DNA of 64,000 nucleotides from Synchiropus splendidus (Eukaryota; Chordata; Actinopteri; Syngnathiformes; Callionymidae), in contig NC_071348.1 in NCBI RefSeq assembly GCF_027744825.2, positions 19,625,563-19,689,562 of the forward strand. The letters run 5' to 3'. The position numbers and the translations under genes are program-made. How positions within the stretch are numbered: position 1 is the first letter of the stretch; each line of letters opens with the position of its first letter. Under the pieces are notes generated by a model. The model was given only the letters and a program-made list of their open reading frames with translations, had not been told where the DNA came from and ran no database searches. Of the stretch, positions 18,373 to 57,300 are shown in pieces.

Positions 18373-18407
18373 GTACCCCCCCCTTAAAGAACACCTCTTG
18401 GTGTTCT
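18373..18407 (-). other. Polypurine tract and conserved hairpin
   Basis: In element orientation a purine run (AAGGGGGGGGTAC) abuts the TGTCATGG start of the 3' LTR, the expected position of the plus-strand primer. Just upstream, AGAACACC and GGTGTTCT (18388-18395 and 18400-18407) form a perfect 8-bp stem with a 4-nt loop. This overlaps the TAG stop of the coding frame. The same stem-loop is kept in the diverged copy at 25067-25086. Confidence 0.8.
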
Positions 18408-20601: not shown

Positions 20602-20606
20602 GTTAA

Positions 20607-20619
20607 GTGCCAGATCGTT
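20607..20619 (-). other. Self-complementary primer-binding site
   Basis: In element orientation the 13 nt AACGATCTGGCAC begins 2 nt after the 5' LTR end. It is not a recognisable tRNA 3'-end complement. It is the exact reverse complement of GTGCCAGATCGTT, which lies inside the LTR (minus strand, 21356-21344). In Tf1/sushi elements the first nucleotides of the transcript anneal to such a site and self-prime. The match therefore also suggests that R begins near 21356. Confidence 0.75.
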
Positions 20620-20621
20620 TC

Positions 20622-40702: not shown

Positions 40703-41238
40703 GTGGGTTCCGGAACGCCAAACATAAAAATGTTGATAACTTTGGAAAAACACTTCAGACAGCTTAGATGTGATGTGCAACTACTAGAAAGACCCTTTCT
40801 GCCATTGTGGGAGGTGAAAATTTCATGTTCTGAAGCTTCCCTGCAAAATTATGGCACAATGGAGAAAACGCAATTTTAGCCTGAGATAAGGTGGGTTCCG
40901 GAACGCCAAACATAAAAATATTGATAACTTTGGAAAAACACTTCAGACAGCTTAGATATGATGTGCAACTTCTAGAAAGACCCTTTCTGCTATAGTGGGA
41001 TGTGAAAATTTCATGTTCTGAAGCTTTCCTGCAAAGTTATGGCACAATGCAGAAAACGCGTTTTCAGCCAGAGATAAGGTCGATTCCGGAACGCCAAACA
41101 GAAAAAAGTTGATAACTTTTGAAATACACTTCAGACAGCTTAGATTTGATGTGCAACTACTAGAAAGACCATTTCTGCTATAGTGGGATGTGAAAATTTC
41201 ATGTTCTGAAGCTTTATGCAAAGTTATGGCACAATGCG
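40703..41238 (+). repeat. 188-bp satellite array, tract 4 (~2.9 monomers)
   Basis: A short satellite remnant between the solo LTR and the retrovirus, in the same orientation and phase as the rest. It ends with ...CACAATGCG, of which ATGCG is the target duplication of the retrovirus. Confidence 0.95.
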
Positions 41239-42390
41239 TGTCGTCGGGTTTAGGTTTTCAAGGTCTTGTGTACAAGGCGATTGGCTATAACATAAGCCGT
41301 CCCTAGTTCCGAGCACACTACCTCCCTTTGCCTCTCTGGTAAAGGGCCCCTCGGTTGGTCAACTCAGTCAGCCTCTTGTTGCGGACACGGTTCTAAGACT
41401 ATAACAAGCGTATCAACTATACCTTATTATATTAGTGAGTAGTGTCGGCGCTTCACTGAGCGGGTTATTTAATTAGCCCGACCTGTTTAGAAACAGGTTC
41501 TTGACCTTACAATGCTACACCTTACCGTAGTCTCTTTACTTAACTTCGTTTAGGGACTCATGATCGGATCCTAAATCCATTCCTTTCAAATAACATTTTC
41601 CCCATAAATGCCTAAAACTACCACCTAATCATTGACACAATAATTCAGGATGGAATAATGCTACCATGTGAGACACTCATTACATGTGCAACAGGAGGAA
41701 ATCAAACAGTAACTCACCTATAACCCAATTGATGGTAGTAGGTAGGAGCCAGTTGATTCTTTAGTAGTCAGGGATCAACGCCGTTGTGCCTTTTCAGTAC
41801 TTAATTCGTACTCAATTTTATTATGTTTTTTGTCACAAAAATGTTTCTTCAAAAAATTAATAAAAGAATAGTAAAAACAGCAAAGTCAACCAAAAATAAT
41901 AAAATCCATAAACTCAAGGGTATCGCCAGACGCTGATACCCAACAATATCAAAAGTACCGCCAGACGCTGGTACTAGTACATATACTTCAAAAACCATAT
42001 AATCAAAAATACTTCAAAGACCGTATAATCAAAAAATACTTCAAAATCATATAATCAAAATTACTGCAATAAAAAGGATTAATTCAAAAATAGTAAGAGA
42101 GAAATAAAAGATGAGTTAAAATCAAATGGTCCGAGAGCAAACAGCAAGAGCACCGTCCCAAGATAAGATATAAAACCTTACAGCGGACAGACGCGGGCGA
42201 AGATCCAAAAAGAGCAAGAACCCAGGGTCACATCTCCGAGCGCTTATATAGCCACACACAGCTTTGAAGACACACCGACGTCCGTTAAATATTATTTAGC
42301 AGGTCCATTAATGATAAAAACAGAAACAATACCAAATATTATTTAGCAGGTTTTGATTATAATATTTTCGAACTTCCAGTATATACAACA
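41239..42390 (-). repeat. 3' LTR, with a U3 deletion
   Basis: 1152 bp, matching the right LTR except for a few substitutions, a 2-bp indel (TACACCTTACC against TACACCTCTTACC) and one large gap. The right LTR has 376 extra bp (53684-54059) between CCGACGTCCGTT and AAATATTATTTAGC. The missing block lies upstream of the TATA box in element orientation, so it removes much of U3. Confidence 0.92.
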
Positions 42391-42400
42391 TCCCCCTCCG
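42391..42400 (-). other. 3' polypurine tract
   Basis: In element orientation CGGAGGGGGA directly precedes the TGTTG start of the 3' LTR, the expected plus-strand primer position. It lies 13 bp after the stop codon of the last gene. Confidence 0.8.
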
Positions 42401-42413
42401 AAAATATCTTCCT

Positions 42414-43922
42414 TCACCATTTGTCCAATTCGTCAAAGTCCAGTGGTCCGATTCCTTCGTCGTCATCATTTCGTTGTCTCAGCAGTGACTCGAGATCATC
42501 CAATTCTCTCATCATGTTCACGTAGTAGCAGATCCACATCAGCGCCGATGCCGATCTTGGCACACCAGGCGACGTAGGGCTGGACGTCAAAGGGGCAGTG
42601 TAGTCATTAGGTTCTCCACCACAATCCTCAGACGCTGCGGGACCTGGAACCTCATCTTGGGGAGTACTGGGTGAATATTCATTTCGTGGGGCTGGAGTCG
42701 AGTGGCTTGCAGATTGAGAAGATGTGGGGCACAGATCACTGGAGTCTTCAGTTTGAGGAGAAGGTGTCTGGCGTCTTGGTGATGCCGGGGGTACAGGGTT
42801 TAGCATGCTTCCGGGGTTCATCTCCACAGGGCCATCTGTCCCCGTGTGAGAGTCATTAACGGGGCCTGCTACGAACTGTCCAACATCAGGGAAGACAAAG
42901 CTGATGTCCCTCATGTTTAACCCACACAGGTGGCAACTTCCCAAGATATGGCCATCGTGCTTACAAAGGAGTGGATCTTTAAGGGCTACTAATTCTCCCT
43001 TACAATAAGCACAATTTGCTGCGCTGGCATCTCCTTGGTGATCTGGCTGTTCTTCCTGGCTGTCCTCAACTGCACTACTTTCTGAAGGTGGTGGGGCATT
43101 CGGCAGTGGTTCGGGAGAGGACCGCGCTGGCTCAGGGTACATCGGTACAGACACGGAGGCCCTCCGACACTTGGGTGCCCTTGGGGCTGGAGTAGCTACC
43201 GACTCCGAGCTGGCAGGTGTCTCGTCATTGGACGGGAGATTGCTTCTCCCTCCAGAGGCCACCTCTGTGCTACTGGATGTCGCGGCTCTCCTTGCCCAAC
43301 GTCTCGCCGGGTTTGCTCTCCGGGGGGCGGGCCTCCCGAGTTGCCGTTTGTACTGTTGGAGCATGGCAGGGCGCCTCCAGTCGCGATTTCCCTTCAACAC
43401 CGGCATTGCTTCCTCCTTAGCTCCACTCATCACCAGTCGGGCGAATTTTTCCCAAGTGACTGGTCCTTGCATATGCCAACCAAGTGCCGTGGGCACCACT
43501 GATCTGTCTTTCAACAACCTTTCGATCCACTCATAGTAACCACTAGGACAATATCCTCCTTGGTAATGTTGTGTACCAAGCCCCCCATGCCACAATTCAT
43601 CATGCTCCCTGATGACGCACTCCTCCCAGTCCTCATACACACTCACGACGTCTTTCTGCCATTGAGTCACCATCAGTAAGTTTGGGTCATAGAGGTAAAT
43701 CTGATTCTCGGGAGGTTGGTAGCCTGGCTGAATGTGTCCTGGCCCCCAAGGTCTGGCCGGGCTAACATTTCCCAAGTCTTCGTTGTATATTTCTCCCACC
43801 TGTTCGGTTCTCAGCACCATTCCCTCCATCATATACGGAGGATGGAATGCTCCGCGTTCAATCCAGGATGTCTGCCCAGGTCCTATTTTACAATGGTACG
43901 CCCTAATGGCGCGCGTGGTCAA
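42414..43922 (-). CDS. Transactivator-like accessory protein, 3'-most gene
   Basis: Open for 502 codons. The frame has no ATG at its start (the first codon is TTG, shortly after an upstream TAA) and the first ATG is at 43832, so the 5' end may come from splicing or be damaged. Visible features: an N-terminal half rich in Trp and Tyr (residues 1-170); an arginine-rich stretch at about 191-213 that could be a nuclear localisation signal; a Ser/Pro-rich linker; a Cys/His cluster at 304-333 (CxxC, then C, H, H, then CxxC) that looks like a zinc site; another Ser/Pro-rich region; and an acidic, hydrophobic C-terminus (about 472-502, with DDLESLL and DFDEL). A basic region plus an acidic C-terminus, in the last gene before the LTR, is the layout of foamy virus Tas/Bel1 transactivators. 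This is inference from layout only; I see no clear sequence match. Confidence 0.7.
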   Translation of the reverse strand: MTTRAIRAYHCKIGPGQTSWIERGAFHPPYMMEGMVLRTEQVGEIYNEDLGNVSPARPWGPGHIQPGYQPPENQIYLYDPNLLMVTQWQKDVVSVYEDWEECVIREHDELWHGGLGTQHYQGGYCPSGYYEWIERLLKDRSVVPTALGWHMQGPVTWEKFARLVMSGAKEEAMPVLKGNRDWRRPAMLQQYKRQLGRPAPRRANPARRWARRAATSSSTEVASGGRSNLPSNDETPASSESVATPAPRAPKCRRASVSVPMYPEPARSSPEPLPNAPPPSESSAVEDSQEEQPDHQGDASAANCAYCKGELVALKDPLLCKHDGHILGSCHLCGLNMRDISFVFPDVGQFVAGPVNDSHTGTDGPVEMNPGSMLNPVPPASPRRQTPSPQTEDSSDLCPTSSQSASHSTPAPRNEYSPSTPQDEVPGPAASEDCGGEPNDYTAPLTSSPTSPGVPRSASALMWICYYVNMMRELDDLESLLRQRNDDDEGIGPLDFDELDKW

Positions 43923-44404
43923 CGGGGCAGCTTATCATCCCCGGGGAACGTAAACTCCCAGAGTTCAGCACAAACAACTGGGAGCCAATGGTTCAATGGC
44001 TCGTTCTCCTGGCACATTACCACAAAGCATGGCCATGCCTGGAGAATGAACGGGGTCTCCTTTTCGAATGACCACACAACCCGATCCCTCGCTTTGATTT
44101 CATGCGGTATTCACAATTTTTGGACCTTCTTTTTATGATCTTGGGTAAGTACACCGCGTGACACCTTTGCTGTAAATCTCATGCAGGGCTCGCCCCTCCA
44201 ATATTCAACCATTTTGGTGGAGGGTCCCCAACTAAAAATCCTATGTTTTCCTTTGTCTACAGGGCGGACTTTGGTTCCGGGATCAAGGGGCTCCATGATC
44301 ACATCTAGGGCTAACAGGACTCTCGTTTTTTGTGTGTGCCATGGATCCCATTGATCTGCTTTGTCGTTCCCGTCCGTAATCACAATTGGGCCCTGCAGAA
44401 ACAT
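43919..44404 (-). pseudogene. Accessory ORF interrupted by an in-frame TGA
   Basis: An ATG at 44404 opens 97 codons to a TGA at 44113-44111. The same frame then stays open for 63 more codons (starting IPHEIKARDRVVWSF) to a TGA at 43921-43919. The second half looks like genuine coding sequence (Trp-rich, few rare residues), so the first TGA is probably a later mutation; CGA to TGA by CpG decay would do it. The final TGA overlaps the start of the 502-codon frame, which lies in another phase. The two could therefore be exons or halves of one former gene. Function unknown. Confidence 0.5.
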
Positions 44405-44413
44405 TACAAAATG

Positions 44414-45064
44414 TCAATTTTGAGAAGGTCTACGAACAGTAGACGCCATTCCAAACAGCCTTATGCTGTTCGAAGTTTTCCATATCTTTATGGGGTAACA
44501 AGTCCCCATCAGATAACCTATATAAAACACAGAGACATACAAAGAAGTTCCTCCAGCTAACTTTTTGAACAGAATCCATATCATCAGAATCATCCATTGC
44601 GCAGTAAGATTAAGTGCTGCTTTTTTATACCTCCCCAGGGTTGACCAAATTAATGTCAGCAATGAGCCTATGAGTATGAAGTATATCGCCGTTCCTGCTA
44701 TAATGCAATAGGTACACTGAGAACTTATGCAAAACAAAAGGGCCAATTCGGTGTACAGACTGTCCAGTACGTACACTATGGCGACCGCGGTCGGCCAAAG
44801 CCATGGTCTCTGAGGGCTTAAATTTAAACCCACGCCTCCAATGAGGCCGAACGAGGCATGTAAAGGGGATGCTTTTCTAACGAAAAAGCGAATGCACCCT
44901 ACTATTAATCCGAGGATGCATCCCAGACAAGTTTTTTGCTTATGTAATGGAGGAACAAATATTACTTGCAAAATGGACAGCATTGCAAAATCAATAAAAT
45001 CTGCCCCTACCTGGGGAGGACTCTCGGGGTGACACCCGGTGGTGTTCGTCTGGTTGCTTGCCAT
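44414..45064 (-). CDS. Small polytopic membrane protein of the retrovirus
   Basis: 216 codons from a proper ATG at 45064. The N-terminus has two potential N-glycosylation sites (NQT, NTT at residues 4-9). Hydrophobic segments lie at about 21-39, 46-62, 69-82 (weak), 88-113, 117-140, 150-166 and 173-190, giving five to seven likely membrane spans. Positive residues lie in short loops (HKQK, RK, RYKK). The C-terminal ~25 residues are hydrophilic. I do not recognise the family. It sits between env and the transactivator-like gene on the env strand, so it would be expressed from a spliced transcript or an internal promoter. A multi-span membrane protein is not a standard retroviral gene; a captured host gene or a viral ion-channel-like protein are both possible. 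The frame is fully open with no obvious damage. Confidence 0.65.
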   Translation of the reverse strand: MASNQTNTTGCHPESPPQVGADFIDFAMLSILQVIFVPPLHKQKTCLGCILGLIVGCIRFFVRKASPLHASFGLIGGVGLNLSPQRPWLWPTAVAIVYVLDSLYTELALLFCISSQCTYCIIAGTAIYFILIGSLLTLIWSTLGRYKKAALNLTAQWMILMIWILFKKLAGGTSLYVSVFYIGYLMGTCYPIKIWKTSNSIRLFGMASTVRRPSQN

Positions 45065-45710
45065 GTTCAGTGCGACTAAACGTGAGATACTTGCTGCGCT
45101 GCTCTTTACAGGTGCTTGCGGATGGAGGCGTTACCTTGAGTCCCCTGTTGATGTAGGCGGAGCGTCAGTGCATCTGCTCCAGTACACGCCCATGTCATCC
45201 AGAAGAGAGTCCAAACTATTGTCTGGTTCCGTGCTGTGTTTAAACACTTTATGGGTATTTTAATGTAATCGTGGGTAAAAGCTATGGAGCGTATTACATT
45301 GCTCTGCAAAGTTGTATCATTTAGTTCTCATTTTAATCAATCCTGAATTGATATCGTAAACTAATACTTTGGTACTGATTAAGATGTATTTTTCTGTTAT
45401 TACAGTGGTAACTTTTGATCTCTCACTCTCTTTCTCTCTCTCTCTCCACCCTCTGAGAGTTTTAAGAGAACTCTAAGTAACTATGATTTTACACGGTGTA
45501 TTGTCCGTCCTTCAACACCAGTCCTCTCTTTAGGAGAACTGGGTAACTTTGAAGTTAAGTAATATTAATATTATTAAAATGATGCCTAACACTCAGGTTA
45601 AAATTATGATTTTCATCCTAAGATTTTCCTTATTTACTTCCCCCTCAGGTACTTTCGTGGCCAGTACCTTAATCCTTAATACATAAGTGGGATGCCTAAC
45701 CCAAACCTAG
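45065..45710 (-). other. Non-coding spacer after env
   Basis: No convincing gene. In element orientation it contains a purine run GAGGGGGAAG (plus strand 45637-45646) close to the sequence of the 3' polypurine tract, and a long GA-rich stretch (CT-repeat on the plus strand, about 45419-45450). A short open frame (45309-45106) starts at TTG. It includes a hydrophobic stretch (TIVWTLFWMTWACTGADA) and runs into CAAG/GTAACG, which resembles a splice donor. This could be a signal-peptide exon or an internal promoter region; neither is proven. Confidence 0.4.
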
Positions 45711-48700
45711 CTATACCCCCTGTCCATTGACTTTTTTCCACTTTTCTTGCTTCTTTTTCTTTATTTCTTCTTTGACATCTCGAAGAGCCTTTCTCAAGAA
45801 CTCTTTCTCTTGTCTTCCTTTTCGTCTTTGGACTGCACGGCACGGATAGCAGCATATACTATTAAGGCACCGACATAAAGTGACTACTTTAGAGATTACG
45901 GCGAGAGCTACGAGGATCGCTAATACAAGCAATATCCATTTTAGGTACCACCATATAAATTCGATAATTTCCCACACAGCTGCCGCTGTATCTACAACTC
46001 CCTGTCCTATTCCATACATCATAGCTTCCGACATCATTCCAAAAAACCCTAGCCATCCTGCCGTCGGTACTTTCTTCCGAAAGTCACGTACAACATGCCA
46101 ATAATCGTTTAATTTCTCACAGGCATATGGGTCCTTGGTTATATTGATCTCAGGGGCACTATATTCCTCATATACGCAGCTTCTCTCTCCTTTTGGAATG
46201 TACCAGGGAGATGAATTACTGTATGTCATCTTTGATAGGATTATATCATCCAATTCAAAAACATGTGTCTGTGATTTTGCATACACTCTGTCTTTGTTAC
46301 ATAGTTGATCTCGATATGTTTCATATTGATTATACATGAGGAACCCTGGATTTATACTTTCTAAAAGCCCAATCGGAGCAGCCACTTTCGGCCAGTGTGG
46401 TATGGCTACATGTATTCCAAGCCGTCCACACATTTTTTCTCTATTATTCAACAATATACCGTGTGTTCCCCACCTAGTAGTAAAATAGGATTCATGCTCT
46501 CTTTTTAGTTGCTTGGCTACTTGGGACCCATTAAAACATCCAGAACTATTACACGGGATATAACCCCACTGATGTGGGTCACATGGATTAGAGTCGTGAC
46601 TATAAACTGCCTTAGGCTTCAGGTTAGGTGCTCGGAAACACCCTTGGTATCCTGTAACGTTTAAACTAAAATGCTCGGGGTCTTGGGGTTGCCATCTAAG
46701 TTGTGGATATTGAACACTACTTATAATGGGGAACCAAGTCTTCTTAAATTCAGTTTTATCAAACACCTGACTCTGTGTTTGTCTTGTATTATTGACCTGA
46801 AAGAGGTCTAGCCCTGCTATCAGAAATCTTTCCGTAGTCATTAGAGTAGTATGGACAAACGGGAATGATGACTGAATTGTTCTTACGTGGCGCCATTCCG
46901 GGTGTTGTTTAAAATATTGTTTGACTGTCTTCAGATGATCGGGCAACAGAAACGTAGCTGTGTACCTTGTAGATATATCTTCAACTTTTCCCTTTTTCTG
47001 TCCACTATCTTTTGGCGAGGCCTCTACGAAAAGTGGTTCCATTGCGAGATGAGGCCAGGCTCGTATAGATACTTCCCCATTGGAGTCATTCCAGGAGACT
47101 TCTTTCCTTTTCAAGAAATTTTGATAATTAGCTAATTGATCCTGAAGGGCCATTCCCGGGGTTCTTTTACCTCCTTTTATTTGAGTAATGTCGCCCCATA
47201 ATTGACTTGGGTTAAACAATAACGTTGCTTCTTTAAGAGCGGCGTACCACGTTTTTTGGCCATCATTTTGGAGTCCCTCCGTAGATGGTTTATTCCATTC
47301 AGTAATATTCTCCTGGTATACTGAATCATATCCCCATTCTCCTTGCTCAGTCTGTACTTTTACTTCATAGTTTCTAACCTTTCCTCTTAATGTGTTGAGT
47401 GGATTCACGGAATCTGGCAATCCTGGGTTTACAAGGAACCTATGTATCACAGTGGTATTTTTTCCTCCATCGCTAGGAGTTTGTAATTCATCGTACGATA
47501 CTAGGTGTGGCCATATCAACATTTCTAAACTTTCTGTGTCAAACGAATTCCATCCTAATCCTTGTCCCAAAATGAGACCAGCTAACTGTGACCATTCCCA
47601 TGCCTTAAAGAAAACCGTCGGATAATTTTTAGCTTTATCGTTCAGACATGTGGGAAGAATAATGTGTTTATGACTATTCAGTTGTTGACCTGTTGGTTGG
47701 CCGCTTGGGCAGGATAAATTAACTGGTAGGTCCAATGTACAATACTCCATCGCCTCTGCCCAGTCTTTTCCTCTCATAGGATAAAATATCCTATTCTCTG
47801 TATTGTTAGGCTTCTCATTAATGAGCTGATATGCGTATTTGACATGATTTATGTTTATACCAAGCTTTTGAGATAAACATCTCTTAGCTTCAGCCCACCA
47901 AACTGACTGATTATTTCTGACCCAGTTTTTCCAAGGTTGCTGCGTCATCATAGGGATCGCGAGGCCTATTTGGTCCCTTCGGCACTCACATGCTTCTTTG
48001 TGACAGTCATTTCCTTCTTCCATTCCTTTACCATTAAACTGTTTATTATGGCATAATATACCATCTTCTTGCAATGCTCTTAATCTGTACCACATGACTC
48101 TTCTCTGTACCACAGGGTATTTCAGCCAAGCTTTCCAGAATTTACTATCTGGATGCTGATCTGCAATGTACTCTCCTCCCGATCCATTAATCTTGTTCCT
48201 ATTTTGTTCGCTCATAGTGGTCAACAGATGCCACCTCCAATAAACATTGCGTAAGCCAGTGTCTCGTGGGCTAGTGTCGTACTCATCACTCTTGGGCCCT
48301 TTGTTTCTGCAATCTTTCCCTGGTTGACACCTAGGATAAACCTCCTCTTCCCCGAAATGGGTGTCCGGGGAAGACTTGCCGTCTGACCATGGTTTAGAAC
48401 CATTTGTCATCAAATAAAGACAATTGTCGAATTGTGTCTCTTCTGGTATGGAGAGAAAAAACGTAACTTGTTGTTCCTTCTCTCCTTCACTTTTAGCTGG
48501 ATTTGCTGCGGTTACAGTGTTAAGAATGGATTCAAGTAACACCAGCATGGTTTTTGTCTCTACCTTTTGGAACATTTCTTTAGAACATGTGTACTCCAGC
48601 TCTCTTCTAACTCTTCTAGAAACAGGGTCAGCCGAATCAGTGTTTAACACGTCGGGATCAGAGTTAGCTGAAAAAGGTAGGGGGGCTATATCTAACAGGA

Positions 48701-50195
48701 GTTGTCCTATTTGATTACTTTTATCCCATTCTTCATTTCCATATGCTTCTGTGGTTGTCCACAGTTCTTCTTCCCATGTTCTATTATTATAGATAGATTG
48801 TTCAACCCTTCTAATAAGCGGGGCATTCCACACATGGGTGGTATTGATTTTCTGGCATGTTTTCATCATATAATATCTATCCTCTCCTGTCGACCAGCCC
48901 CGTCTCGTTTGTTGGGCAAAAACTTTATAATAACAGGTTTTATCAGAGTTGATATTGAAGGACCATCCAGAAAGTCTCATCTCTTCATGATTGATTAACT
49001 TTACTTTTACTGTTACAAATTCCTTGGAGGTAGGTCCATAATGAGTCACTATATCTTTCCAGGTGTCGTATTCACATAGGGTTTGATTCTTCCGTTTACA
49101 CTGGGCCTTATATTCACACAGCCTCTCATACGCTGCCTGAGATGCCTGGAGAAGCCAGTCCATGAGTCCTTCATCACAATTTAACACGTTAACACTTTTA
49201 AATGGGATATCACATTCTCCCATGCTTTCCTTGTGAGGATCTGCGGGCTCTGATGTGAACATTGGGGCCATCGTATTTACGTCAACTGTTTTGCCGTCAG
49301 ATGTTGAGATTATATTAGTCTCCATTTGATCAGGGGCCATTGTTGGGGTATACATGATTATGGAATCTATAGGAGATGTGGCCATGACTGTCTTCTTTTC
49401 AGTCATTGCTGCACCGAGATTCCCTTCATTGTCTTTGGCAGATAAAGTAGTCTGAGTATCTATTCCTGTCGTGCCATTATTCCTGGTATCTTTTCCAGGT
49501 TCAGGTGTAGTCATGCTACGGGCCATACGGCTTTCGATCACGTCAATATTTCCTATTTGATTGATCGGACTGGGGGTAATTGGCATAGCAGCAGCTGTCC
49601 AAGTAGAAAGTGCGGCAGTTTTGTCCACAGGGTTTTCCACGCTTCGGCGACGTCTCCGTTTAAGTGTCTTGACGGTCACCTGACTCTTCACTTCCTGACT
49701 ATCAAGTTTTGGTTTCTCATACTCACAAGTGCCACTTATAGCTCCATGGATATTTAGGTAGACAATTGCTTGTTTTATCCATAGAGCTTGATCAAATTGA
49801 GTGCCATTTTTATCTGTTGCAATTGGCAAGGATATTTCTTTCGTATCCGGGGTTAAGACAGTGCAGTTTCTACAACGTACTGTTTTCGATTTCCAACGTC
49901 GGGTGACACTGCTGGTATAGGTCATATGTTCATAGACTATATTTGACCATGAGGCTATTACTAATATTAATATAAATAGTAGCATTCCAATTATGAAAAG
50001 TCTCAAGGGAGACATCCTAGTGGTTTTCTCCCATTCCTTGATCATTTTATCGCGTTTCATTTGTTTCCTGGAAATTTTAGCTGGTGTCTGGTGCTGTATA
50101 TCCTTGGCCTGATCTTTATATGCCAATTGTTGTCTCGCCTTAAACTGCCACCAGCGCCTAGCTCTCCAATACCAGAATTTATCCCATAAATTCAT
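45711..50195 (-). CDS. env: Envelope glycoprotein (Env), foamy-like layout, 1494 residues
   Basis: A full-length open frame from an ATG at 50195. The N-terminal cytoplasmic segment is tryptophan-rich (MNLWDKFWYWRARRWW), comparable to the W-containing leader that binds Gag in spumaviruses. A hydrophobic anchor lies at about 64-83. Furin-type sites are KRRRRRS at about 179-185 and SRRVRR at about 526-531, suggesting leader and surface-subunit cleavage. The ectodomain is rich in cysteine and N-glycosylation sequons. Near the C-terminus are a glycine-rich hydrophobic stretch, a membrane anchor at about 1413-1437 and a ~57-residue basic tail ending in a lysine cluster (IKKKKQEKWKK). Such lysines recall the ER-retrieval signal of foamy Envs. 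At 1494 residues it is about half as long again as typical foamy Envs (about 1000). A canonical hydrophobic fusion peptide right after the second furin site is not evident. Its start overlaps the upstream gene by 17 nt. Confidence 0.88.
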   Translation of the reverse strand: MNLWDKFWYWRARRWWQFKARQQLAYKDQAKDIQHQTPAKISRKQMKRDKMIKEWEKTTRMSPLRLFIIGMLLFILILVIASWSNIVYEHMTYTSSVTRRWKSKTVRCRNCTVLTPDTKEISLPIATDKNGTQFDQALWIKQAIVYLNIHGAISGTCEYEKPKLDSQEVKSQVTVKTLKRRRRRSVENPVDKTAALSTWTAAAMPITPSPINQIGNIDVIESRMARSMTTPEPGKDTRNNGTTGIDTQTTLSAKDNEGNLGAAMTEKKTVMATSPIDSIIMYTPTMAPDQMETNIISTSDGKTVDVNTMAPMFTSEPADPHKESMGECDIPFKSVNVLNCDEGLMDWLLQASQAAYERLCEYKAQCKRKNQTLCEYDTWKDIVTHYGPTSKEFVTVKVKLINHEEMRLSGWSFNINSDKTCYYKVFAQQTRRGWSTGEDRYYMMKTCQKINTTHVWNAPLIRRVEQSIYNNRTWEEELWTTTEAYGNEEWDKSNQIGQLLLDIAPLPFSANSDPDVLNTDSADPVSRRVRRELEYTCSKEMFQKVETKTMLVLLESILNTVTAANPAKSEGEKEQQVTFFLSIPEETQFDNCLYLMTNGSKPWSDGKSSPDTHFGEEEVYPRCQPGKDCRNKGPKSDEYDTSPRDTGLRNVYWRWHLLTTMSEQNRNKINGSGGEYIADQHPDSKFWKAWLKYPVVQRRVMWYRLRALQEDGILCHNKQFNGKGMEEGNDCHKEACECRRDQIGLAIPMMTQQPWKNWVRNNQSVWWAEAKRCLSQKLGININHVKYAYQLINEKPNNTENRIFYPMRGKDWAEAMEYCTLDLPVNLSCPSGQPTGQQLNSHKHIILPTCLNDKAKNYPTVFFKAWEWSQLAGLILGQGLGWNSFDTESLEMLIWPHLVSYDELQTPSDGGKNTTVIHRFLVNPGLPDSVNPLNTLRGKVRNYEVKVQTEQGEWGYDSVYQENITEWNKPSTEGLQNDGQKTWYAALKEATLLFNPSQLWGDITQIKGGKRTPGMALQDQLANYQNFLKRKEVSWNDSNGEVSIRAWPHLAMEPLFVEASPKDSGQKKGKVEDISTRYTATFLLPDHLKTVKQYFKQHPEWRHVRTIQSSFPFVHTTLMTTERFLIAGLDLFQVNNTRQTQSQVFDKTEFKKTWFPIISSVQYPQLRWQPQDPEHFSLNVTGYQGCFRAPNLKPKAVYSHDSNPCDPHQWGYIPCNSSGCFNGSQVAKQLKREHESYFTTRWGTHGILLNNREKMCGRLGIHVAIPHWPKVAAPIGLLESINPGFLMYNQYETYRDQLCNKDRVYAKSQTHVFELDDIILSKMTYSNSSPWYIPKGERSCVYEEYSAPEINITKDPYACEKLNDYWHVVRDFRKKVPTAGWLGFFGMMSEAMMYGIGQGVVDTAAAVWEIIEFIWWYLKWILLVLAILVALAVISKVVTLCRCLNSICCYPCRAVQRRKGRQEKEFLRKALRDVKEEIKKKKQEKWKKVNGQGV

Positions 50196-51423
50196 TATTC
50201 TTCTTTCCCTTTCTTCTTTTGAGAAGGAGGGCTATTCGCGATTGCTTACCACTAGCTGGTCGCTTGCCTTTATCGCGTACTTTAGGCACCTCCTCGTCTT
50301 CTGACCCAGGACTATCAAGATCCTGTGGGTGAGAAGAGGGTGGTGGCATTAGTTCTTGCAACGCCGTCTTTTTGATCTCTCCTGATTGGTTCATAATAGC
50401 TGAACTGTTCTTGGGATTATTCCTCTCCCCCTCTGGACCAATCGCACCTCCCAGGCATGGTTCTAGGTGCTGCTGGAAAAACGTGCTGCCTGGCATCTCA
50501 TGATCCAAGACAGCTTCAGTAAATCCAGTACGGCTGAGCTTAGCTCTCCTCTTCAGCCAAGCTGACCACCATCCAGTCACCTTTGTCCTTGCTACAGGTC
50601 TAACCGGGATCGAGACATTAGTCAGTATCATCAAGTCCTTTGTGTCAACTTCTATGAAGACCCCCAACGGGCACCATATGAAGCCAGTGAACGAGATAAG
50701 GACATGGGCGGTCCCAGACACTACACGTGGGCCGCATTCAGTAACAAGAATAAGGTTACGTTCAATAGTGGAGACCCTAGCTTCCTGTACCTCCTTAGCA
50801 TGCCTGGGCAAGGTTCCAGAAGTTGTAAAAATCCTCTTATTGTTGGTTAAATGCGGGTAGTTGTACACGTCTGGGCAGAATATATTCCCCTTAGCCACTC
50901 TATCTTGGGGCCATATTTGCTCGGTCCACCACCTTCCCATGGAGGTGGATTCCCAATCTCTCTGGCTATAGCCTGGCAAGGATAGGCTTCCATCTCCAGA
51001 CAAACGCAAGCCATCCTCCCACTTCCAAGGGAGAAAGTCTTCCCACTTCATGGTGGTATCCCTGGGGATGACTGAGAGTTTCTTTTCCTGTTTTGATGAC
51101 AATTTGTCATAGCCAATCGTCATCACGGTCTGGTATATCAGAATGGGGCAGTTCCAAGAATCTATGACACTGGCCCGTAAAGCAAACGGTGACTGAGGAA
51201 GGTGATCGTTTGAGTGGAAACGATACCGCAGCGCCAAGAACTGTGCTGGGTTTATCTGCCAGGGGGTGCCAGTATCGCACACATTCCAAACCCCGTTACG
51301 TCGGCCACAGGTGCATGGCCCGCAATGCGTGTCTTTGCGTAGTATTTGATATCGACATCCCCACGAGTCCCAGCAGCACTTGCAAAACGTGAAGGGGCAG
51401 ACCCCATTAATTCGATCCCGCAC
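50179..51423 (-). CDS. Pol-env intergenic gene, main (3') part
   Basis: 414 open codons with a non-ATG first codon (GTG), entered just after an in-frame TGA. It is therefore probably the continuation of the frame that starts at 51788 after a one-base shift. It opens with a cysteine-rich stretch (nine Cys between residues 9 and 49, including CKCC and CGPCTC). It then has a Trp-rich central region (WEDFLPWKWED, GRWW, TGWWSAW at about 293) and ends with an acidic patch (SEDEEVP) followed by a strongly basic tail (about residues 386-410, with KRRKGKK) that could be a nuclear or nucleolar signal. No known family recognised. It overlaps env by 17 nt. Foamy viruses have no separate gene here; lentiviruses have vif/vpr-type genes in this position, but I see no sequence resemblance to them. 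Confidence 0.6.
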   Translation of the reverse strand: MRDRINGVCPFTFCKCCWDSWGCRYQILRKDTHCGPCTCGRRNGVWNVCDTGTPWQINPAQFLALRYRFHSNDHLPQSPFALRASVIDSWNCPILIYQTVMTIGYDKLSSKQEKKLSVIPRDTTMKWEDFLPWKWEDGLRLSGDGSLSLPGYSQRDWESTSMGRWWTEQIWPQDRVAKGNIFCPDVYNYPHLTNNKRIFTTSGTLPRHAKEVQEARVSTIERNLILVTECGPRVVSGTAHVLISFTGFIWCPLGVFIEVDTKDLMILTNVSIPVRPVARTKVTGWWSAWLKRRAKLSRTGFTEAVLDHEMPGSTFFQQHLEPCLGGAIGPEGERNNPKNSSAIMNQSGEIKKTALQELMPPPSSHPQDLDSPGSEDEEVPKVRDKGKRPASGKQSRIALLLKRRKGKKNNEFMG

Positions 51424-51788
51424 ATCAAATGTTCAGCGCCCACCTCCGCTCGCTTAGGACGGTGCTCATGCTTGTACTTTGCATCTCCAGACCAAATTAG
51501 GGCAAAATCAGGCGCAGCACAAAGGACACAGTCACCAGGCTCATAGTTAGACCAACTAACACTGGTGGTGGGGTGAGTATAGGGCATAACAATCCCTTTT
51601 TTCCAGAAGTGATTAACACCATCCCAGGCCATGACCAAAAGGCCATTATTTGGGAAGACTCGGTCGGGGAGCATCTTCACATAGTCCTCCCCAACCCCCT
51701 GAACCCAACCTGGCACATGGTCTCGGTCAGCTTCCATCCTGATTTTTATACTTAAGTCGTAGTTGCTTGGGGTGGTACCTGTGGCCAT
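51252..51788 (-). CDS. Pol-env intergenic gene, 5' part
   Basis: An ATG at 51788 lies inside the 3' end of the integrase frame (62-nt overlap, different phase), a typical way for retroviral accessory genes to start. The first ~120 codons look like real protein (Trp/Tyr-rich, PYTHPTTSVSWSNYEPGD). After about 51425 this frame becomes Ala/Gly-rich and unlikely, while the overlapping frame encoding the Cys-rich segment takes over. The simplest reading is one gene of about 1.6 kb (51788-50179) disrupted by a single-base change or needing a -1 shift near 51425. I see no typical slippery heptamer or strong stem at that point. Confidence 0.5.
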   Translation of the reverse strand: MATGTTPSNYDLSIKIRMEADRDHVPGWVQGVGEDYVKMLPDRVFPNNGLLVMAWDGVNHFWKKGIVMPYTHPTTSVSWSNYEPGDCVLCAAPDFALIWSGDAKYKHEHRPKRAEVGAEHLMCGIELMGSAPSRFASAAGTRGDVDIKYYAKTRIAGHAPVADVTGFGMCAILAPPGR

Positions 51789-52164
51789 CTTTACCCGTAA
51801 GTACGTTCCCTTCGACTTTAACTATAGTGGTAGATTTTCCGGTGGCGAGTATCCACACCTCACTTCCCATCTGTAACGATACAGAGGGCTCGTGAGAGTG
51901 GGCAGGGGTAGAACCCCGTAACTTGGGGAGACTGAGTTGTTGGTTAATGGCAAAGAGGTTTTCAGGTAAGTGCCATTTGTGCTTATACAGTAGTATTCGT
52001 GATTTTGCCGCGCGTACTGCACGTTCCGTGACTCCGTTAGTGTTGGATTGATGCGGGATGGATAAGACATGTCGTATCCCTTCCTGCTCCAACCATGAAC
52101 GAAAGTGCTTGGAAGTGCACATGGCGGCATTATCTCTTAAGAGCTCCACCACTTTTTGGCACAA
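51727..52164 (-). pseudogene. pol: C-terminal part of retroviral integrase (pol remnant)
   Basis: The frame is open from just after a TGA near 52173 to a stop at 51727; the listed start is a TTG, not a real initiator. It encodes the second half of the integrase catalytic core. DNAAMCTSKHF contains the second catalytic Asp (residue 11), and SNTNGVTERAVRAAK contains the catalytic Glu (residue 47), with 35 residues between them, the canonical D-x35-E spacing. A C-terminal SH3-like segment follows (GSEVWI ... VLTGKDGHRYHPKQLRLK). The first catalytic Asp, the zinc-binding N-terminus, RNase H, reverse transcriptase and protease are all missing, so this is a deletion product. Confidence 0.85.
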
Positions 52165-52615
52165 CCTCCTTGCTCATTTCCATTTTTCAATCTCAGTCAA
52201 ATTATTTTTAAGGAATTCACTTTACCGGCTATGAACAGTTTCCCGAACTATGCCGCTGCTTCCTGCTGCAGTTCCCCAGTTGTCCTTAGCGGACTCCTTA
52301 CCATGGGGTGCCCGTTATAAGACCTCACGGGACTTTTTGCTGTACTTCTGTATTCCAGCTATATTATATAGTTGTGCTACAATTACCTTAATACTTTAAC
52401 TATCCTGCTCGGGGTGATCAGTCCCAAGGGACAGTCTCTTGGTAAGTTGTAGAATCAACACAATCGTACGTTGTCGAGTGATAGAGCCTGAATCTATTTC
52501 TTTGATTCAAAACTCAGAGATTGTAGGATCCATCTATTTACTACCGAACTTTTCCGGCCAGAATTTTAATCTGTGGTCCAGTTACTCACAAATAGATTGT
52601 ACGTTTTTCAATCAT
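52165..52615 (-). other. Retroviral leader and deletion junction
   Basis: No gene. Between the primer-binding site and the integrase fragment lie about 450 bp of leader. In element orientation it contains CATGGTAAGG (GGTAAG at 52302-52297), a good candidate for the major splice donor. It also has an ATG in the context AAAAATGGAAATGAGC just before the integrase fragment, which may be the old gag start. The gag-pol deletion junction is probably near 52165-52180. Confidence 0.45.
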
Positions 52616-52633
52616 GTCCCTGTTCGGGCGCCA
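52616..52633 (-). other. Primer-binding site matching tRNA-Lys3
   Basis: In element orientation TGGCGCCCGAACAGGGAC follows the 5' LTR directly. This is the 18-nt complement of the 3' end of tRNA-Lys(UUU), the primer of lentiviruses and some betaretroviruses. Foamy viruses normally use the tRNA-Lys1,2 site instead. Confidence 0.9.
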
Positions 52634-54163
52634 TGTCGTCGGGTTTAGGTTTTCAAGGTCTTGTGTACAAGGCGATTGGCTATAACATAAGCCGTCCCTA
52701 GTTCCGAGCACACTACCTCCCTTTGCCTCTCTGGTAAAGGGCCCCTCGGTTGGTCAACTCAGTCAGCCTCTTGTTGCGGACACGGTTCTAAGACTATAAC
52801 AAGCGTATCAACTATACCTTATTATATTAGTGAGTAGTGTCGGCGCTTCACTGAGCGGGTTATTTAATTAGCCCGACCTGTTTAGAAACAGGTTCTTGAC
52901 CTTACAATGCTACACCTCTTACCGTAGTCTCTTTACTTAACTTCGTTTAGGGACTCATGATCGGATCCTAAATCCATTCCTTTCAAATAACATTTTCCCC
53001 ATAAATGCCTAAAACTACCACCTAATCATTGACACAATAATTCAGGATGGAATAATGCTACCATGTGAGACACTCATTACATGTGCAACAGGAGGAAATC
53101 AAACAGTAACTCACCTATAACCCAATTGATGGTAGTAGGTAGGAGCCAGTTGATTCTTTAGTAGTCAGGGATCAACGCCGTTGTGCCTTTTCAGTACTTA
53201 ATTCGTACTCAATTTTATTATGTTTTTTGTCACAAAAATGTTTCTTCAAAAAATTAATAAAAGAATAGTAAAAACAGCAAAGTCAACCAAAAATAATAAA
53301 ATCCATAAACTCAAGGGTAACGCCAGACGCTGATACCCAACAATATCAAAAGTACCGCCAGACGCTGGTACTAGTACATATACTTCAAAAACCATATAAT
53401 CAAAAATACTTCAAAGACCGTATAATCAAAAAATACTTCAAAATCATATAATCAAAATTACTGCAATAAAAAGGATTAATTCAAAAATAGTAAGAGAGAA
53501 ATAAAAGATGAGTTAAAATCAAATGGTCCGAGAGCAAACAGCAAGAGCACCGTCCCAAGATAAGATATAAAACCTTACAGCGGACAGACGCGGGCGAAGA
53601 TCCAAAAAGAGCAAGATCCCAGGGTCACATCTCCGAGCGCTTATATAGCCACACACGGCTTTGAAGACACACCGACGTCCGTTTTCTAACGCTAACTTAT
53701 CTTGTTTTTCTCCAGGTGGCCTTTTGAAATCCTTCCCTCAAAAGGATACATGTTTGGTGATGGATCATATTAGTGTCAATTGCGTCAGCTCTTGCATCAT
53801 TTTTTTTTTACGTCACTGATGCCCGGTTTACCATATTAGGTCAGTACATCTAATCCATTTTGCCAGCACGTGCGCACAAGTTCAAACTAAGTTCAAGATG
53901 GCCACTTTCTCATGACTTCAAACGAGCGCGCCTACAAGGTCATTCTCAGATCCAAGCACACAGCTGTTCGTGAGTTCAAACGCGCACGATCAAAAGCATA
54001 CAGGTTCACTAAAGTTCGAAACATTAAACAATTAATGATAAAAAATCAGAAACAATATCAAATATTATTTAGCAGGTCCATTAATGATAAAAACAGAAAC
54101 AATACCAAATATTATTTAGCAGGTTTTGATTATAATATTTTCGAACTTCCAGTATATACAACA
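52634..54163 (-). repeat. 5' LTR, full length (1530 bp)
   Basis: TGTTGTATATAC...GACGACA in element orientation. It keeps the 376-bp U3 block absent from the other LTR. That block includes ACGTCA and CACGTG motifs (53800-53875) of the kind bound by bZIP and bHLH factors. Next to it, a ~50-bp unit containing ATTAATGATAAAAA and AAATATTATTTAGCAGG is present twice (about 54031-54125). A poly(A)-signal-like AATAAA (minus strand) lies at 53219-53214. Confidence 0.92.
53641..53647 (-). promoter_or_regulatory. LTR TATA box
   Basis: TATATAA on the minus strand, in the context GGCTATATAAGCGCTC. The matching site in the 3' LTR is 42244-42250. Transcription would be expected to start about 25-30 bp further along, near 53612. 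The sequence is intact in both LTRs. Confidence 0.6.
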
Positions 54164-54399
54164 ATGCGTAAAACCCGTTTTCAGCCTGAGATAAGGTCGA
54201 TTCCGGAATGCCAAACATAAAAATGCTGATAACTTTGGAAAAACACTTCAGACAGCTTAGATTTGACGAGCAACTACAAGACAGACCCTTTCTGCAATAG
54301 TGGGAGGTGAAAATATCATATTCTGAAGCTTCCCTGCAAAGTCATGGCACAATGCAGAAAACGCGTTTTCAGCCTGAGATAAAGTCGATTCCAGAACGC

Positions 54400-57300
54400 C
54401 AAACATAAAAATGTTGCTAACTTTGGAAAAACACTTCAGACAGCTTAGATTTGATCTGCAACTACTAGAAAAACCCTTTCTGCCATCGTGGGAGGTGAAA
54501 ATTTCATGTTCTGAAGCTTCCCTGCAAAGTTAAGGAACAATGCGTGAAACGTGTTTTCAGCCTGAGATAATGTGGGTTCCGGAACGCCATACATAAAAAT
54601 GTTGACAACTTTGGAAAAACACTTCAGACAGCATAGATTTGATGTGCAACTACGAGAAAGACCCTTTCTGCTATAGTGGGATGTGAAAATTGCATGTTCT
54701 GAACCTTTATGCAAAGTTATGGCACAATGTGTAAAATGCGTTTTCAGCCTGAGATAAGGTCGATTCCGGAACGCCAAACATAAAAATGTTGATAACTTTG
54801 GAAAAACACTTCAGACAGCTTAGATTTGATGTGCAACTACTAGAAAGACCCTTTCTGATATAGTGGGTGGTGATAATTCGATGTTCTGAAGCTTCCCTGC
54901 CAAGTTATGGCACAATTCCGAAAACGCGTTTTCAGCCTGAGACAAGGTCGATTCCAGAACGCCAAAAATAAAAATGTTGATAACTTTGGAAAAACACTTC
55001 AGACAGCTTAGATTTGATGTGCATCTACAAGAAAGACCCTTTCTGCCATTGTGGGAGGTGAAAATTTTATGTTCTGAAGCTTCCCTGCAAATTTATGGAA
55101 CAATGCGTAAAACGCGTTTTCAGCCTGAGATAAGGTCGATTCAGGAACGCCAAACATAAAAATGTTGATAACTTTGGAAAAACACTTCAGACATCTTAGA
55201 TTTGATGTGCAACTACTAGAAAGACCTTTTCTGCTATAGTGGAAGTTTAAAATGTCATGTTCTGAAGCTCCCCTGAAAAGTTATGGCACAATGCAGAAAA
55301 CGCGTTTTCAGCCTGAGATAAAGTCGATTCCGGAACGCCAAACATAAAAATGTTGCTACCTTTGGAAAAACACTTCAGACAGCTTCGATTTCACATGAAA
55401 CTACTAGAAAGACCATTTCTGCTATAGTGGGATGTGAAAATTTCATGTTCAGAAGCTTTATGCAAAGTTATGGCACAATGCAGAAAACGCGTGTTCAGCC
55501 TGCGATAAGGTCGATTCCGTAACGCCAAACATAAAAATGTTGATAACTTTGATAAAAACACTGCAGACAGCTTAGATTTGATGTGCAACTACTAGAAAGT
55601 CCCTTTATGCTATTGTGGGAGGTGAAAATTTCATGTTCTGATGTATCCCTGCAAAGTTGTGGCACAATGCAGAAAAAGTGTTTTCAGACTGAGATAATGT
55701 GGGTTCCAGAACGCCAAACAAAAAAATGTTGATAACTTTGGAAAAACATTCCAGACAGCTTAGATTTGATATGCAACTACTAGAAAGACCCTTTTTGCTA
55801 TAGTGGGAGGTGAAAATTTCATGTTCTGAAGCTTTATGCAAAGTTATGGCACAATCCGTATAACGCGTTTTCAGCCTGAGATAAGGTGGGTTCCCGAACG
55901 CCAAACATAAAAATGTTGAAAACTTTGGAAAAACACTTCAGACAGCTTAGATTTGATGTGCAAGACCTTTTCTGCTATAGTGGAAGTTTAAAATTTCATG
56001 TTCTGAAGCTTCCCTGCAAAGTTATGGCACAATGCAAAAAACACGTTTTCAGCCTGAGATAAAGTCGATTCCGGTACGCCAAACATAAAAATGTTGCTAA
56101 CTTTGGAAAAACACTTCAGACAGCTTAGATTTGATCTGCAACTACTAGAAAAACCCTTTCTGCCATCGTGGGAGGTGAAAATTTCATGTTCTGAAGCTTC
56201 CCTGCAAAGTTAAGGAACAATGCGTGAAACGTGTTTTCAGCCTGAGATAATGTGGGTTCCGGAACGCCATACATAAAAATGTTGACAACTTTGGAAAAAC
56301 ACTTCAGACAGCATAGATTTGATGTGCAACTACGAGAAAGACCCTTTCTGCTATAGTGGGATGTGAAAATTGCATGTTCTGAACCTTTATGCAAAGTTAT
56401 GGCACAATGTGTAAAATGCGTTTTCAGCCTGAGATAAGGTCGATTCCGGAACGCCAAACATAAAAATGTTGATAACTTTGGAAAAACACTTCAGACAGCT
56501 TAGATTTGATGTGCAACTACTAGAAAGACCCTTTCTGATATAGTGGGTGGTGATAATTCGATGTTCTGAAGCTTCCCTGCCAAGTTATGGCACAATTCCG
56601 AAAACGCGTTTTCAGCCTGAGACAAGGTCGATTCCAGAACGCCAAAAATAAAAATGTTGATAACTTTGGAAAAACACTTCAGACAGCTTAGATTTGATGT
56701 GCATCTACAAGAAAGACCCTTTCTGCCATTGTGGGAGGTGAAAATTTTATGTTCTGAAGCTTCCCTGCAAATTTATGGAACAATGCGTAAAACGCGTTTT
56801 CAGCCTGAGATAAGGTCGATTCAGGAACGCCAAACATAAAAATGTTGATAACTTTGGAAAAACACTTCAGACATCTTAGATTTGATGTGCAACTACTAGA
56901 AAGACCTTTTCTGCTATAGTGGAAGTTTAAAATGTCATGTTCTGAAGCTCCCCTGAAAAGTTATGGCACAATGCAGAAAACGCGTTTTCAGCCTGAGATA
57001 AAGTCGATTCCGGAACGCCAAACATAAAAATGTTGCTACCTTTGGAAAAACACTTCAGACAGCTTCGATTTCACATGAAACTACTAGAAAGACCATTTCT
57101 GCTATAGTGGGATGTGAAAATTTCATGTTCAGAAGCTTTATGCAAAGTTATGGCACAATGCAGAAAACGCGTGTTCAGCCTGCGATAAGGTCGATTCCGT
57201 AACGCCAAACATAAAAATGTTGATAACTTTGATAAAAACACTGCAGACAGCTTAGATTTGATGTGCAACTACTAGAAAGTCCCTTTATGCTATTGTGGGA

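What the first reader, a model, noticed from the sequence alone, without database searches (positions are those of the whole stretch)
41239..54163. A very large endogenous retrovirus with a gene content unlike known retroviral genera
After loss of gag and most of pol, the provirus still spans 12.9 kb: LTRs of 1.15-1.53 kb, a 1494-residue Env, a ~1.6-kb gene between pol and env, and three reading frames after env. Adding gag and the missing pol at usual sizes would give roughly 17-18 kb, well above typical retroviruses. Foamy-like Env layout, tRNA-Lys3 priming, a 5-bp target duplication and accessory genes on both sides of env form a combination I cannot assign to a known genus.
Basis: partly seen in the sequence, partly recalled or inferred. 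Interest (0 to 1): 0.88.

Follow-up and report, generated by a model that had tools for sequence, protein, structure and literature searches.

The report
Gutted copy of giant fish retrovirus
The sequence is a recent, gag- and pol-less copy of a foamy-like endogenous retrovirus of what looks like a known fish lineage; longer relatives in the same genome, one of them about 20 kb, carry a macro domain in Gag and appear to have mobilised families of gutted copies.

Summary
A minus-strand provirus lies at 41239-54163, with LTRs of 1530 and 1152 bp, a 5-bp target duplication and an intact 1494-residue Env. The lineage can be assigned: longer copies have foamy-type protease-RT-RNase H-integrase and the gene order of described ray-finned-fish FLERVs (17.4-17.5 kb; PMC5512871). 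One longer copy spans 19,873 bp. "A gene content unlike known genera" is thus only partly right.

Not reported in what I could read: (1) Gag carries a macro domain, kept down to 63-67% identity; (2) a slippery heptamer plus 9-bp hairpin predicts Gag-Pol by -1 frameshifting, unlike exogenous foamy viruses (recalled); (3) one gag-pol deletion junction recurs at 7 of 7 different flanks and the window's at 3 of 3, so deleted elements were probably mobilised in trans. Five of eight deleted copies also lost env but keep 3' genes.

The window copy is one insertion in a 188-bp satellite, copied with it to four contigs. Its "extra frames" are two genes broken by frameshifts. No named FLERV sequence was at hand, so the requested tree was not made.

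The parts
41239..42390 (-). 3' LTR, 1152 bp
   Evidence: TG..CA ends; aligned to the 5' LTR with 3 mismatches; lacks a 376-bp stretch
42391..42399 (-). polypurine tract GGAGGGGGA
   Evidence: abuts the 3' LTR
42414..43922 (-). 502-aa frame: larger part of the 3'-most accessory gene; acidic C-terminus
   Evidence: in relatives continuous with the 97-aa frame; C-terminal end open and acidic in 5 of 5 relatives read
44111..44404 (-). 97-aa frame: front part of the same 3'-most gene, in another frame in this copy
44414..45064 (-). 216-aa protein with several hydrophobic segments, intact
   Evidence: full length in 6 of 6 deleted relatives whose locus reaches it, one of them with a stop
45711..50195 (-). 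env, 1494 aa, intact: N-terminal Trp-rich tail, hydrophobic segment 64-82, furin-type sites near 180 and 528, C-terminal hydrophobic segment 1421-1439
   Evidence: 30 of 31 copies found in the genome have no stop
50179..51423 (-). 414-aa frame: larger part of the gene between pol and env (acc3 position)
51252..51788 (-). 178-aa frame: front part of the same pol-env gene; frameshifted against the 414-aa frame in this copy
51727..52134 (-). integrase remnant, from just before the second catalytic Asp to the C-terminus
52135..52183 (-). first 49 nt of gag, joined by a deletion to the integrase remnant
52184..52615 (-). untranslated leader
   Evidence: The 484-bp stretch 52150-52633 is 97.3% identical to a longer copy
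52616..52633 (-). primer-binding site, read as tRNA-Lys type (tRNA identity recalled)
52634..54163 (-). 5' LTR, 1530 bp
41234..41238 (.). target-site duplication ATGCG
54164..54168 (.). target-site duplication ATGCG
54161..64000 (.). 188-bp satellite array into which the provirus inserted (also directly left, 40703-41237)

Best explanation
The feature is an endogenous provirus of the ray-finned-fish foamy-like retrovirus (FLERV) lineage that has lost nearly all of gag and pol. How it most likely works, step by step. Shown: longer relatives in the same genome have open gag and pol frames, and three of four tested show no LTR difference over the parts compared, so the family was active very recently. 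Shown: gag-pol-deleted forms with the same junction occur at several different insertion sites. Inferred: their RNAs were packaged, reverse transcribed and integrated by Gag and Pol supplied in trans by longer relatives, and the window copy arose this way. Inferred: the env and 3' genes of deleted copies are expressed from the LTR or an internal promoter, and the acidic-tailed 3' protein is the transactivator, as Tas is in foamy viruses (recalled). Shown: this copy inserted once into a 188-bp satellite and copies with the same flanks now lie on contigs C8, C15, C17 and C24 (C24 is a contig of only 0.98 Mb); that they spread with the satellite is inferred from the shared flanks.
For: Anatomy. 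Foamy-type Pol: best solved matches over PR-RT-RNase H are chains 7ksf, 7kse, 7o24 and 7o0g (5.1e-62 to 4e-60), printed as protease or 'Peptidase A9'/RT/RNase H or 'Pr125Pol' and recalled as simian foamy viruses; then Ty3 (1.8e-30), an 'enzymatic polyprotein' (3.7e-24), p80 RT recalled as MLV (1.7e-23) and HIV (about 1e-15). RT alone: foamy 1e-38, Ty3 2e-30. Integrase of L021: eight chains up to E 0.01, four named PFV integrase, the other four 'integrase' and recalled as PFV. Spumavirus protease model, weak: 17.2 bits, cut-off 21. Same gene order and tRNA-Lys primer site as AciFLERV/AliFLERV. Copies: 31 env matches, 30 without a stop. Combining I assign 14 of 31 to gag-pol-deleted forms, 15 to forms with a longer pol frame, 2 undetermined. 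Trans-mobilisation: where both junction and 5' flank were read, one junction type occurs at 7 of 7 different flanks (three of them not satellite), and the window's type at 3 of 3. By frame-length class, six 157-aa copies have at least five different flanks (two agree when shifted by a few bases) and ten 153-aa copies have nine. One insertion for the window type: the same 5' flank in 7 of 7 other copies (99-100%) and the same 3' flank in 6 of 6 fetched (99-100%). Recency: LTR pairs differ at 5/1751, 0/1621, 0/1600 and 0/1709 in four longer copies and 3/1152 in the window (three of the longer pairs are partly cut by the fetched stretch).
Against: The window's own integrase tail matches Rous sarcoma virus integrase best (E 1.4e-4) and foamy integrase only at E 0.46; the foamy assignment rests on longer copies. 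Pfam has no match to any foamy Env, Gag or Bel model at E up to 1 (seven window frames) or up to 10 (gag front 963 aa and two pol pieces), so Env and accessory membership rests on layout and gene order. No named FLERV sequence could be compared. Single-sequence models of the 502- and 414-aa frames were useless (mean pLDDT 38.4 and 32.5), so the transactivator role is inference from an acidic tail. Env of the window type against two relatives gives dN/dS 0.23 and 0.26, which reflects viral history and does not show that deleted copies are selected. Five copies of three frame-length classes share one satellite position, and two others agree with a shift, so some copies may be old shared sites or duplicates rather than new insertions.
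Confidence: 0.88

Rival explanations
1. An unassignable new retroviral genus.
For: Very large size; gene between pol and env; Env without a Pfam match; the window's own integrase tail is closest to Rous sarcoma virus.
Against: Protease-RT-RNase H, RT alone and integrase of longer copies all place it with foamy viruses; the same gene order is published for fish FLERVs.
Confidence: 0.05
2. The deleted classes were never mobile. Full-length insertions lost gag and pol afterwards by recombination and spread only by satellite duplication.
For: The eight window-type copies are duplicates of one insertion; two deleted copies on C18 and C3 share a site; L053 and L054 share a flank with a small shift.
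Against: The same junction, read directly, occurs at 7 of 7 different flanks, three of them outside the satellite, and the window's junction at 3 of 3. Repeated deletion at exactly the same two points after integration is unlikely.
Confidence: 0.12
3. The deletion is a reverse-transcribed spliced RNA, like the Tas-less foamy provirus (recalled).
For: The same integrase end point in two junction types.
Against: No GT-AG pattern at the join: in the longer copy the two bases after the gag end are not GT and the bases before the integrase end are not AG, and the gag end varies by about 14 bases between the two types.
Confidence: 0.04
4. The satellite enrichment means targeted integration into satellite chromatin rather than survival there.
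For: 14 of 20 proviral flanks are satellite against 3 of 20 random samples (Fisher p 0.001; 10 of 16 after collapsing five copies at one position, p 0.005; 9 of 15 after collapsing two more, p 0.011). Several sites fall near one position of the repeat unit. Prototype foamy virus integration moves to centromeres when Gag's nucleosome anchor is lost (PMC12125541, passages).
Against: Copies were chosen by hand from search hits; insertions in genes are lost by selection; satellite duplication multiplies copies.
Confidence: 0.35

Closest known systems
[quoted passage not shown] sections 6 and 7 read, passages elsewhere)
   Same: Gene order gag, pol, acc3, env, accessory genes; tRNA-Lys primer site; extraordinary size (17,409 and 17,490 nt); very young LTR pairs; the authors raised complementation in trans.
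   Different: One longer copy here spans 19,873 bp with 1.75-kb LTRs. Gag has a macro domain; the phrase 'macro domain' occurs nowhere in that paper's main text (supplements could not be opened). I saw no separate acc4 frame. Sequence relation to their acc genes untested.
Exogenous foamy viruses (Spumaretrovirinae)
   Same: Protease-RT-RNase H and integrase of longer copies are closest to theirs among solved structures. Env has a long N-terminal leader with a hydrophobic segment and two furin-type sites. Gag lacks a CCHC knuckle.
   Different: A much larger genome (typical mammalian ones given as about 10 kb in PMC5512871; 19,873 bp in the one longer copy measured here); Env 1494 aa; a gene between pol and env; a predicted -1 frameshift signal where foamy viruses make Pol from its own spliced RNA (recalled); no Pfam foamy Env, Gag or Bel match.
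Fish retroviruses with captured macro-domain genes (Basta et al. 2009, as cited in PMC4977317; one passage read, original not held)
   Same: A macro domain in a fish retroviral genome.
   Different: The review describes epsilon-like sequences with additional reading frames; here the domain is inside the Gag frame of a foamy-like element.

Membership tests
Ray-finned-fish FLERV (acc3-bearing clade) | Pol closest to foamy viruses | tested here: met
   Searches (L020; L021), two longer copies; the window itself keeps only an integrase tail, which alone is closest to Rous sarcoma virus
Ray-finned-fish FLERV (acc3-bearing clade) | Accessory gene between pol and env (acc3 position) | tested here: met
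   By position; one open frame in L018 and L106. Homology to published acc3 not testable
Ray-finned-fish FLERV (acc3-bearing clade) | Accessory genes after env | tested here: met
   Two genes
Ray-finned-fish FLERV (acc3-bearing clade) | tRNA-Lys primer site | tested here: inconclusive
   Site seen; the tRNA it matches is recalled
Ray-finned-fish FLERV (acc3-bearing clade) | Genome above 17 kb | tested here: met
   19,873 bp between outer LTR ends of the one longer copy measured
Ray-finned-fish FLERV (acc3-bearing clade) | Place in a Pol tree with named FLERVs | not testable with these tools
   No named FLERV sequences were found in the tools tried; protein database switched off
Ray-finned-fish FLERV (acc3-bearing clade) | Host is a ray-finned fish | tested here: inconclusive
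   Haemoglobin-beta exon best matches 1xq5, 6hit, 1la6; that these are fish proteins is recalled
Spumaretrovirinae (foamy viruses proper) | Foamy Env protein family | tested here: inconclusive
   Layout fits; no Pfam match to a foamy Env model at E up to 1 and no foamy chain among solved structures at E up to 1
Spumaretrovirinae (foamy viruses proper) | Gag without CCHC zinc knuckle | tested here: met
   Front 963 aa and tail of one gag; no Gly-Arg-rich boxes either
Spumaretrovirinae (foamy viruses proper) | Pol made apart from Gag, from a spliced RNA | tested here: inconclusive
   Sequence points the other way: pol is -1 to gag, with a slippery heptamer and hairpin in two subfamilies; no expression data
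Spumaretrovirinae (foamy viruses proper) | Tas/Bel transactivator at the 3' end | tested here: inconclusive
   Acidic C-terminus in two diverged types; no family match; model useless

The most novel reading that the evidence does not exclude
A roughly 20-kb foamy-like retrovirus lineage whose Gag begins with a macro domain that would let incoming or assembling capsids bind or remove ADP-ribose marks laid by host PARPs. It makes Gag-Pol by -1 frameshifting, unlike foamy viruses. It feeds a layered swarm of trans-mobilised elements: first gag-pol-deleted with env kept, then env-deleted, keeping the same two 3' genes, one of which is the transactivator that lets them transcribe themselves.
Probability: 0.4. 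Interest if true: 0.78.

Novelty: new variant of a known kind. Interest (0 to 1): 0.6.

Why it matters
FLERVs are described as basal to mammalian foamy viruses (PMC5512871, passage), and the accessory proteins of their giant fish forms had no recognised domain. A macro domain in Gag would put a known antiviral battleground, ADP-ribosylation, inside a retroviral capsid protein and would be directly testable in vitro. A frameshift signal in a foamy-like virus would bear on when foamy viruses changed the way they express Pol. The recent family of deleted elements gives a natural experiment in which genes a retrovirus must keep in cis and which it can borrow.

Tried and rejected
Spliced-RNA origin of the deletion: tested at the junction and rejected. 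Similarity between the 414- and 502-aa frames (BLAST E 0.07): not above shuffles. The 376-bp LTR difference as inserted satellite (its length is twice 188): rejected, its score is below the best of 50 shuffles. Since the longer copy's LTR contains that region and a 27-bp repeat lies at its edge, the 3' LTR most likely lost it. Selection acting on deleted copies: the 216-aa frame has dN/dS 0.15-0.38 in six pairs among four deleted copies, but integrase remnants of the same pairs have only 1 to 13 differences and, in five of six pairs, lower synonymous divergence, so the parts have different histories (recombination) and the test cannot say when selection acted. Relatives in viral contigs: none for Env or integrase. 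Structure models of the 502- and 414-aa frames: too poor to search with. Genome-wide count of the 216-aa gene: not completed. A 100-nt fold around the frameshift site is not unusual as a whole (z -0.77). One flank row (C2 near 3.67 Mb) was cut inside the LTR and is not used.
Full report
WHAT IS THERE. The window is C15:19625563-19689562 of an unnamed 582.7-Mb genome in 96 contigs. A haemoglobin-beta exon from it matches best chains 1xq5, 6hit and 1la6, which I recall as ray-finned-fish haemoglobins. The provirus lies on the minus strand at 41239-54163. Its LTRs begin TG and end CA, and ATGCG flanks both ends. A primer site directly follows the 5' LTR and a purine tract directly precedes the 3' LTR. 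It sits in a 188-bp tandem satellite, and the joined flanks restore a normal satellite unit with one 5-bp duplication. The LTRs differ at 3 of 1152 aligned bases plus a 2-bp gap, and a 376-bp stretch is missing from the 3' LTR. With the fish rate quoted in PMC5512871 (1.46e-8 per site per year), that is about 0.09 Myr.

GENES IN THE WINDOW. In provirus order: leader; 49 nt of gag; a deletion; the integrase tail from just before the second catalytic Asp; a gene of about 530 aa between pol and env, present here as two overlapping frames of 178 and 414 aa; Env of 1494 aa; a 216-aa protein with several hydrophobic segments; and a last gene, present here as frames of 97 and 502 aa. None of the seven frames reaches a Pfam cut-off. 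Env has a Trp-rich N-terminus, a hydrophobic segment at 64-82, basic furin-type sites near 180 and 528, 20 N-glycosylation sequons and a C-terminal hydrophobic segment at 1421-1439. That is the leader/SU/TM plan of foamy Env (plan recalled), with a much longer last part.

BROKEN GENES. In L018 the pol-env gene is open through the 499 codons fetched, and in L106 through 509 codons. In 4 of 5 deleted relatives that reach both, the 97- and 502-aa homologues lie in one frame open to the end of the locus; the fifth, L120, has a stop. So the window copy has frameshifts in two genes. Env and the 216-aa gene are intact.

COPIES IN THE GENOME. Env finds 31 copies, 30 without a stop: 8 at 99-100% identity and 23 at about 97% (31 of 310 first-look candidates were scored, so this is a lower bound). 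The integrase piece finds 150 matches (150 of 412 candidates scored), many in pol frames of 1157 aa. Frames of 147-157 aa mark gag-pol-deleted classes; frames of 162 and 179 aa have another structure upstream. Combining, I assign 14 of the 31 env copies to gag-pol-deleted forms and 15 to forms with longer pol frames; 2 remain undetermined.

THE LONGER RELATIVES. I read one copy on C15 near 17.7 Mb in separate stretches. It spans 17705811-17725683, 19,873 bp, with LTRs of 1751 and 1753 bp and a 5-bp duplication readable at its ends. Its leader is 97.3% identical to the window's. Its gag frame is 1218 aa without a CCHC knuckle, and pol is in the -1 frame. Its PR-RT-RNase H is closest to foamy viruses: 5.1e-62, against Ty3 1.8e-30, MLV 1.7e-23 and HIV about 1e-15 (the chains' organisms are partly recalled). 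For RT alone foamy viruses give 1e-38 and Ty3 2e-30. The integrase of another subfamily (L021) matches eight integrase chains up to E 0.01, four named PFV, and has an HHCC motif. Against this, the window's own integrase tail is closest to Rous sarcoma virus (1.4e-4; foamy 0.46). The LTR pairs of four longer copies differ at 5/1751, 0/1621, 0/1600 and 0/1709 bases; three of these pairs were partly cut by the fetched stretch.

MACRO DOMAIN. The Gag front part carries a Pfam Macro domain (35.3 bits, cut-off 22, E 1.3e-8). Its best solved match is a MacroD-type macrodomain (E 0.0019). 132 matches to this part occur in the genome (148 of 206 candidates scored); 26 lie in frames of 1218 aa, one of these with a stop, and a 67%-identical class has frames of 1187-1189 aa among others. 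The second ligand loop (loop role recalled), of GTGVFNYP type, is kept in 8 of 9 aligned sequences (Tyr or Phe at one position); L103 changes one residue. dN/dS is 0.24-0.39 in four comparisons. So the domain has been under purifying selection in the virus. Whether it binds or hydrolyses ADP-ribose is not shown.

FRAMESHIFT SIGNAL. Near the start of the gag-pol overlap stands AAAAAAC, in phase as A AAA AAC with gag. After a short spacer follows a 9-bp hairpin (-14.9 kcal/mol; of 1159 windows of that size along the locus, a fraction of 0.0009, that is one, is as stable). The same heptamer and stem occur in the subfamily of L021, with a changed loop. A 100-nt fold of the region as a whole is not unusual (z -0.77). 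I read this as a probable -1 frameshift signal. Foamy viruses make Pol from a spliced RNA (recalled).

DELETED CLASSES AND MOBILITY. Eighteen junction regions were read (window, L022, L025-L032, L128-L135). Three have the window's junction and nine a second junction with the same integrase end and a gag end about 14 bases further on. Two more (L132, L135) show only three bases of the second type, one (L134) has a variant that my probe missed, and three (L028, L029, L031) have neither. No GT-AG pattern fits. The 5' flanks of 20 copies (19 deleted by frame length, 1 longer) were all located. Where both junction and flank were read, the second junction stands at 7 of 7 different flanks, three of them outside the satellite, and the window's at 3 of 3. 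By frame-length class alone, six 157-aa copies have at least five different flanks and ten 153-aa copies nine. The same deletion at different sites means that the deleted element itself moved, which needs Gag and Pol in trans. Of eight deleted copies read further downstream, five have also lost most of the pol-env gene and all but 42 nt of env, with the same alignment end points; L122, L124 and L127 have partial or no env. The 216-aa gene is full length in the six that reach it (one with a stop), and the last gene's end is open in 5 of 5 stretches.

THE WINDOW TYPE IS ONE INSERTION. The other seven copies of the window type on contigs C8, C15, C17 and C24 share its flank at the 5' side (7 of 7, 99-100% identity) and at the 3' side (6 of 6 fetched; five had been cut one base off, which gave 0.25; after the shift they are 99-100% identical). 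On three contigs a pair of copies lies 317-325 kb apart. The satellite apparently carried the provirus along.

SATELLITE. 14 of 20 flanks are satellite (a BLAST screen counts a fifteenth, partial and 76% identical) against 3 of 20 random 500-bp samples from 16 contigs, one of them only partly. Fisher p is 0.001; 0.005 after collapsing five copies at one position; 0.011 after collapsing two more. Several insertions fall near one position of the unit. The copies were hand-picked from search hits, and survival in satellite would give the same picture. Prototype foamy virus integration moves to centromeres when Gag loses its nucleosome anchor (PMC12125541, passages), so the matter is testable.

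LITERATURE. AciFLERV and AliFLERV (17,409 and 17,490 nt) have gag, pol, acc3, (acc4), env and accessory genes with a tRNA-Lys primer site (PMC5512871, sections 6 and 7). They are the closest described relatives that I found. Macro-domain genes have been noted in epsilon-like fish retroviruses (PMC4977317, passage; original not held). Searches for macro domain or macrodomain with foamy, gag or retrovirus terms and for FLERV showed no report of a macro domain in a foamy-like Gag. From the hits I read passages of six papers and only listings of the rest. The library lacks most subscription journals, including a teleost FLERV paper that I recall, so this is weak evidence of absence.

VERDICT. New here, as far as I could read, are the macro-domain Gag, the frameshift signal and the trans-mobilised deleted classes.

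Noticed in passing
G000 C1:39.85-40.05 Mb: Integrase matches of another subfamily lie in a cluster, many about 13 kb apart, several with Gag frames of 1187-1189 aa: probably a tandem array of proviral segments.
   Followed up: no
77% subfamily, for example C13:23511087 and C13:23514049: A second, partial copy of the Gag front part (residues 189-256) lies 2-3 kb downstream of the first, mostly in frames of 336 aa.
   Followed up: no
L057, L063, L066, L070, L071: Five deleted copies of three frame-length classes sit at the same position of the 188-bp satellite unit, near a TTCCGGAA palindrome; hotspot or old shared site.
   Followed up: partly
window 17649-21234: A GC-rich tandem-repeat block (about 70% GC at 18-20 kb) between satellite arrays, bordered on both sides by 100-bp and 34-bp tandem repeats with the same consensus, 3.1 kb apart.
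   Followed up: no
L136-L140: The last gene occurs in two types only 32-40% identical over their C-terminal part, yet both end in an acidic stretch with the same last residues.
   Followed up: partly
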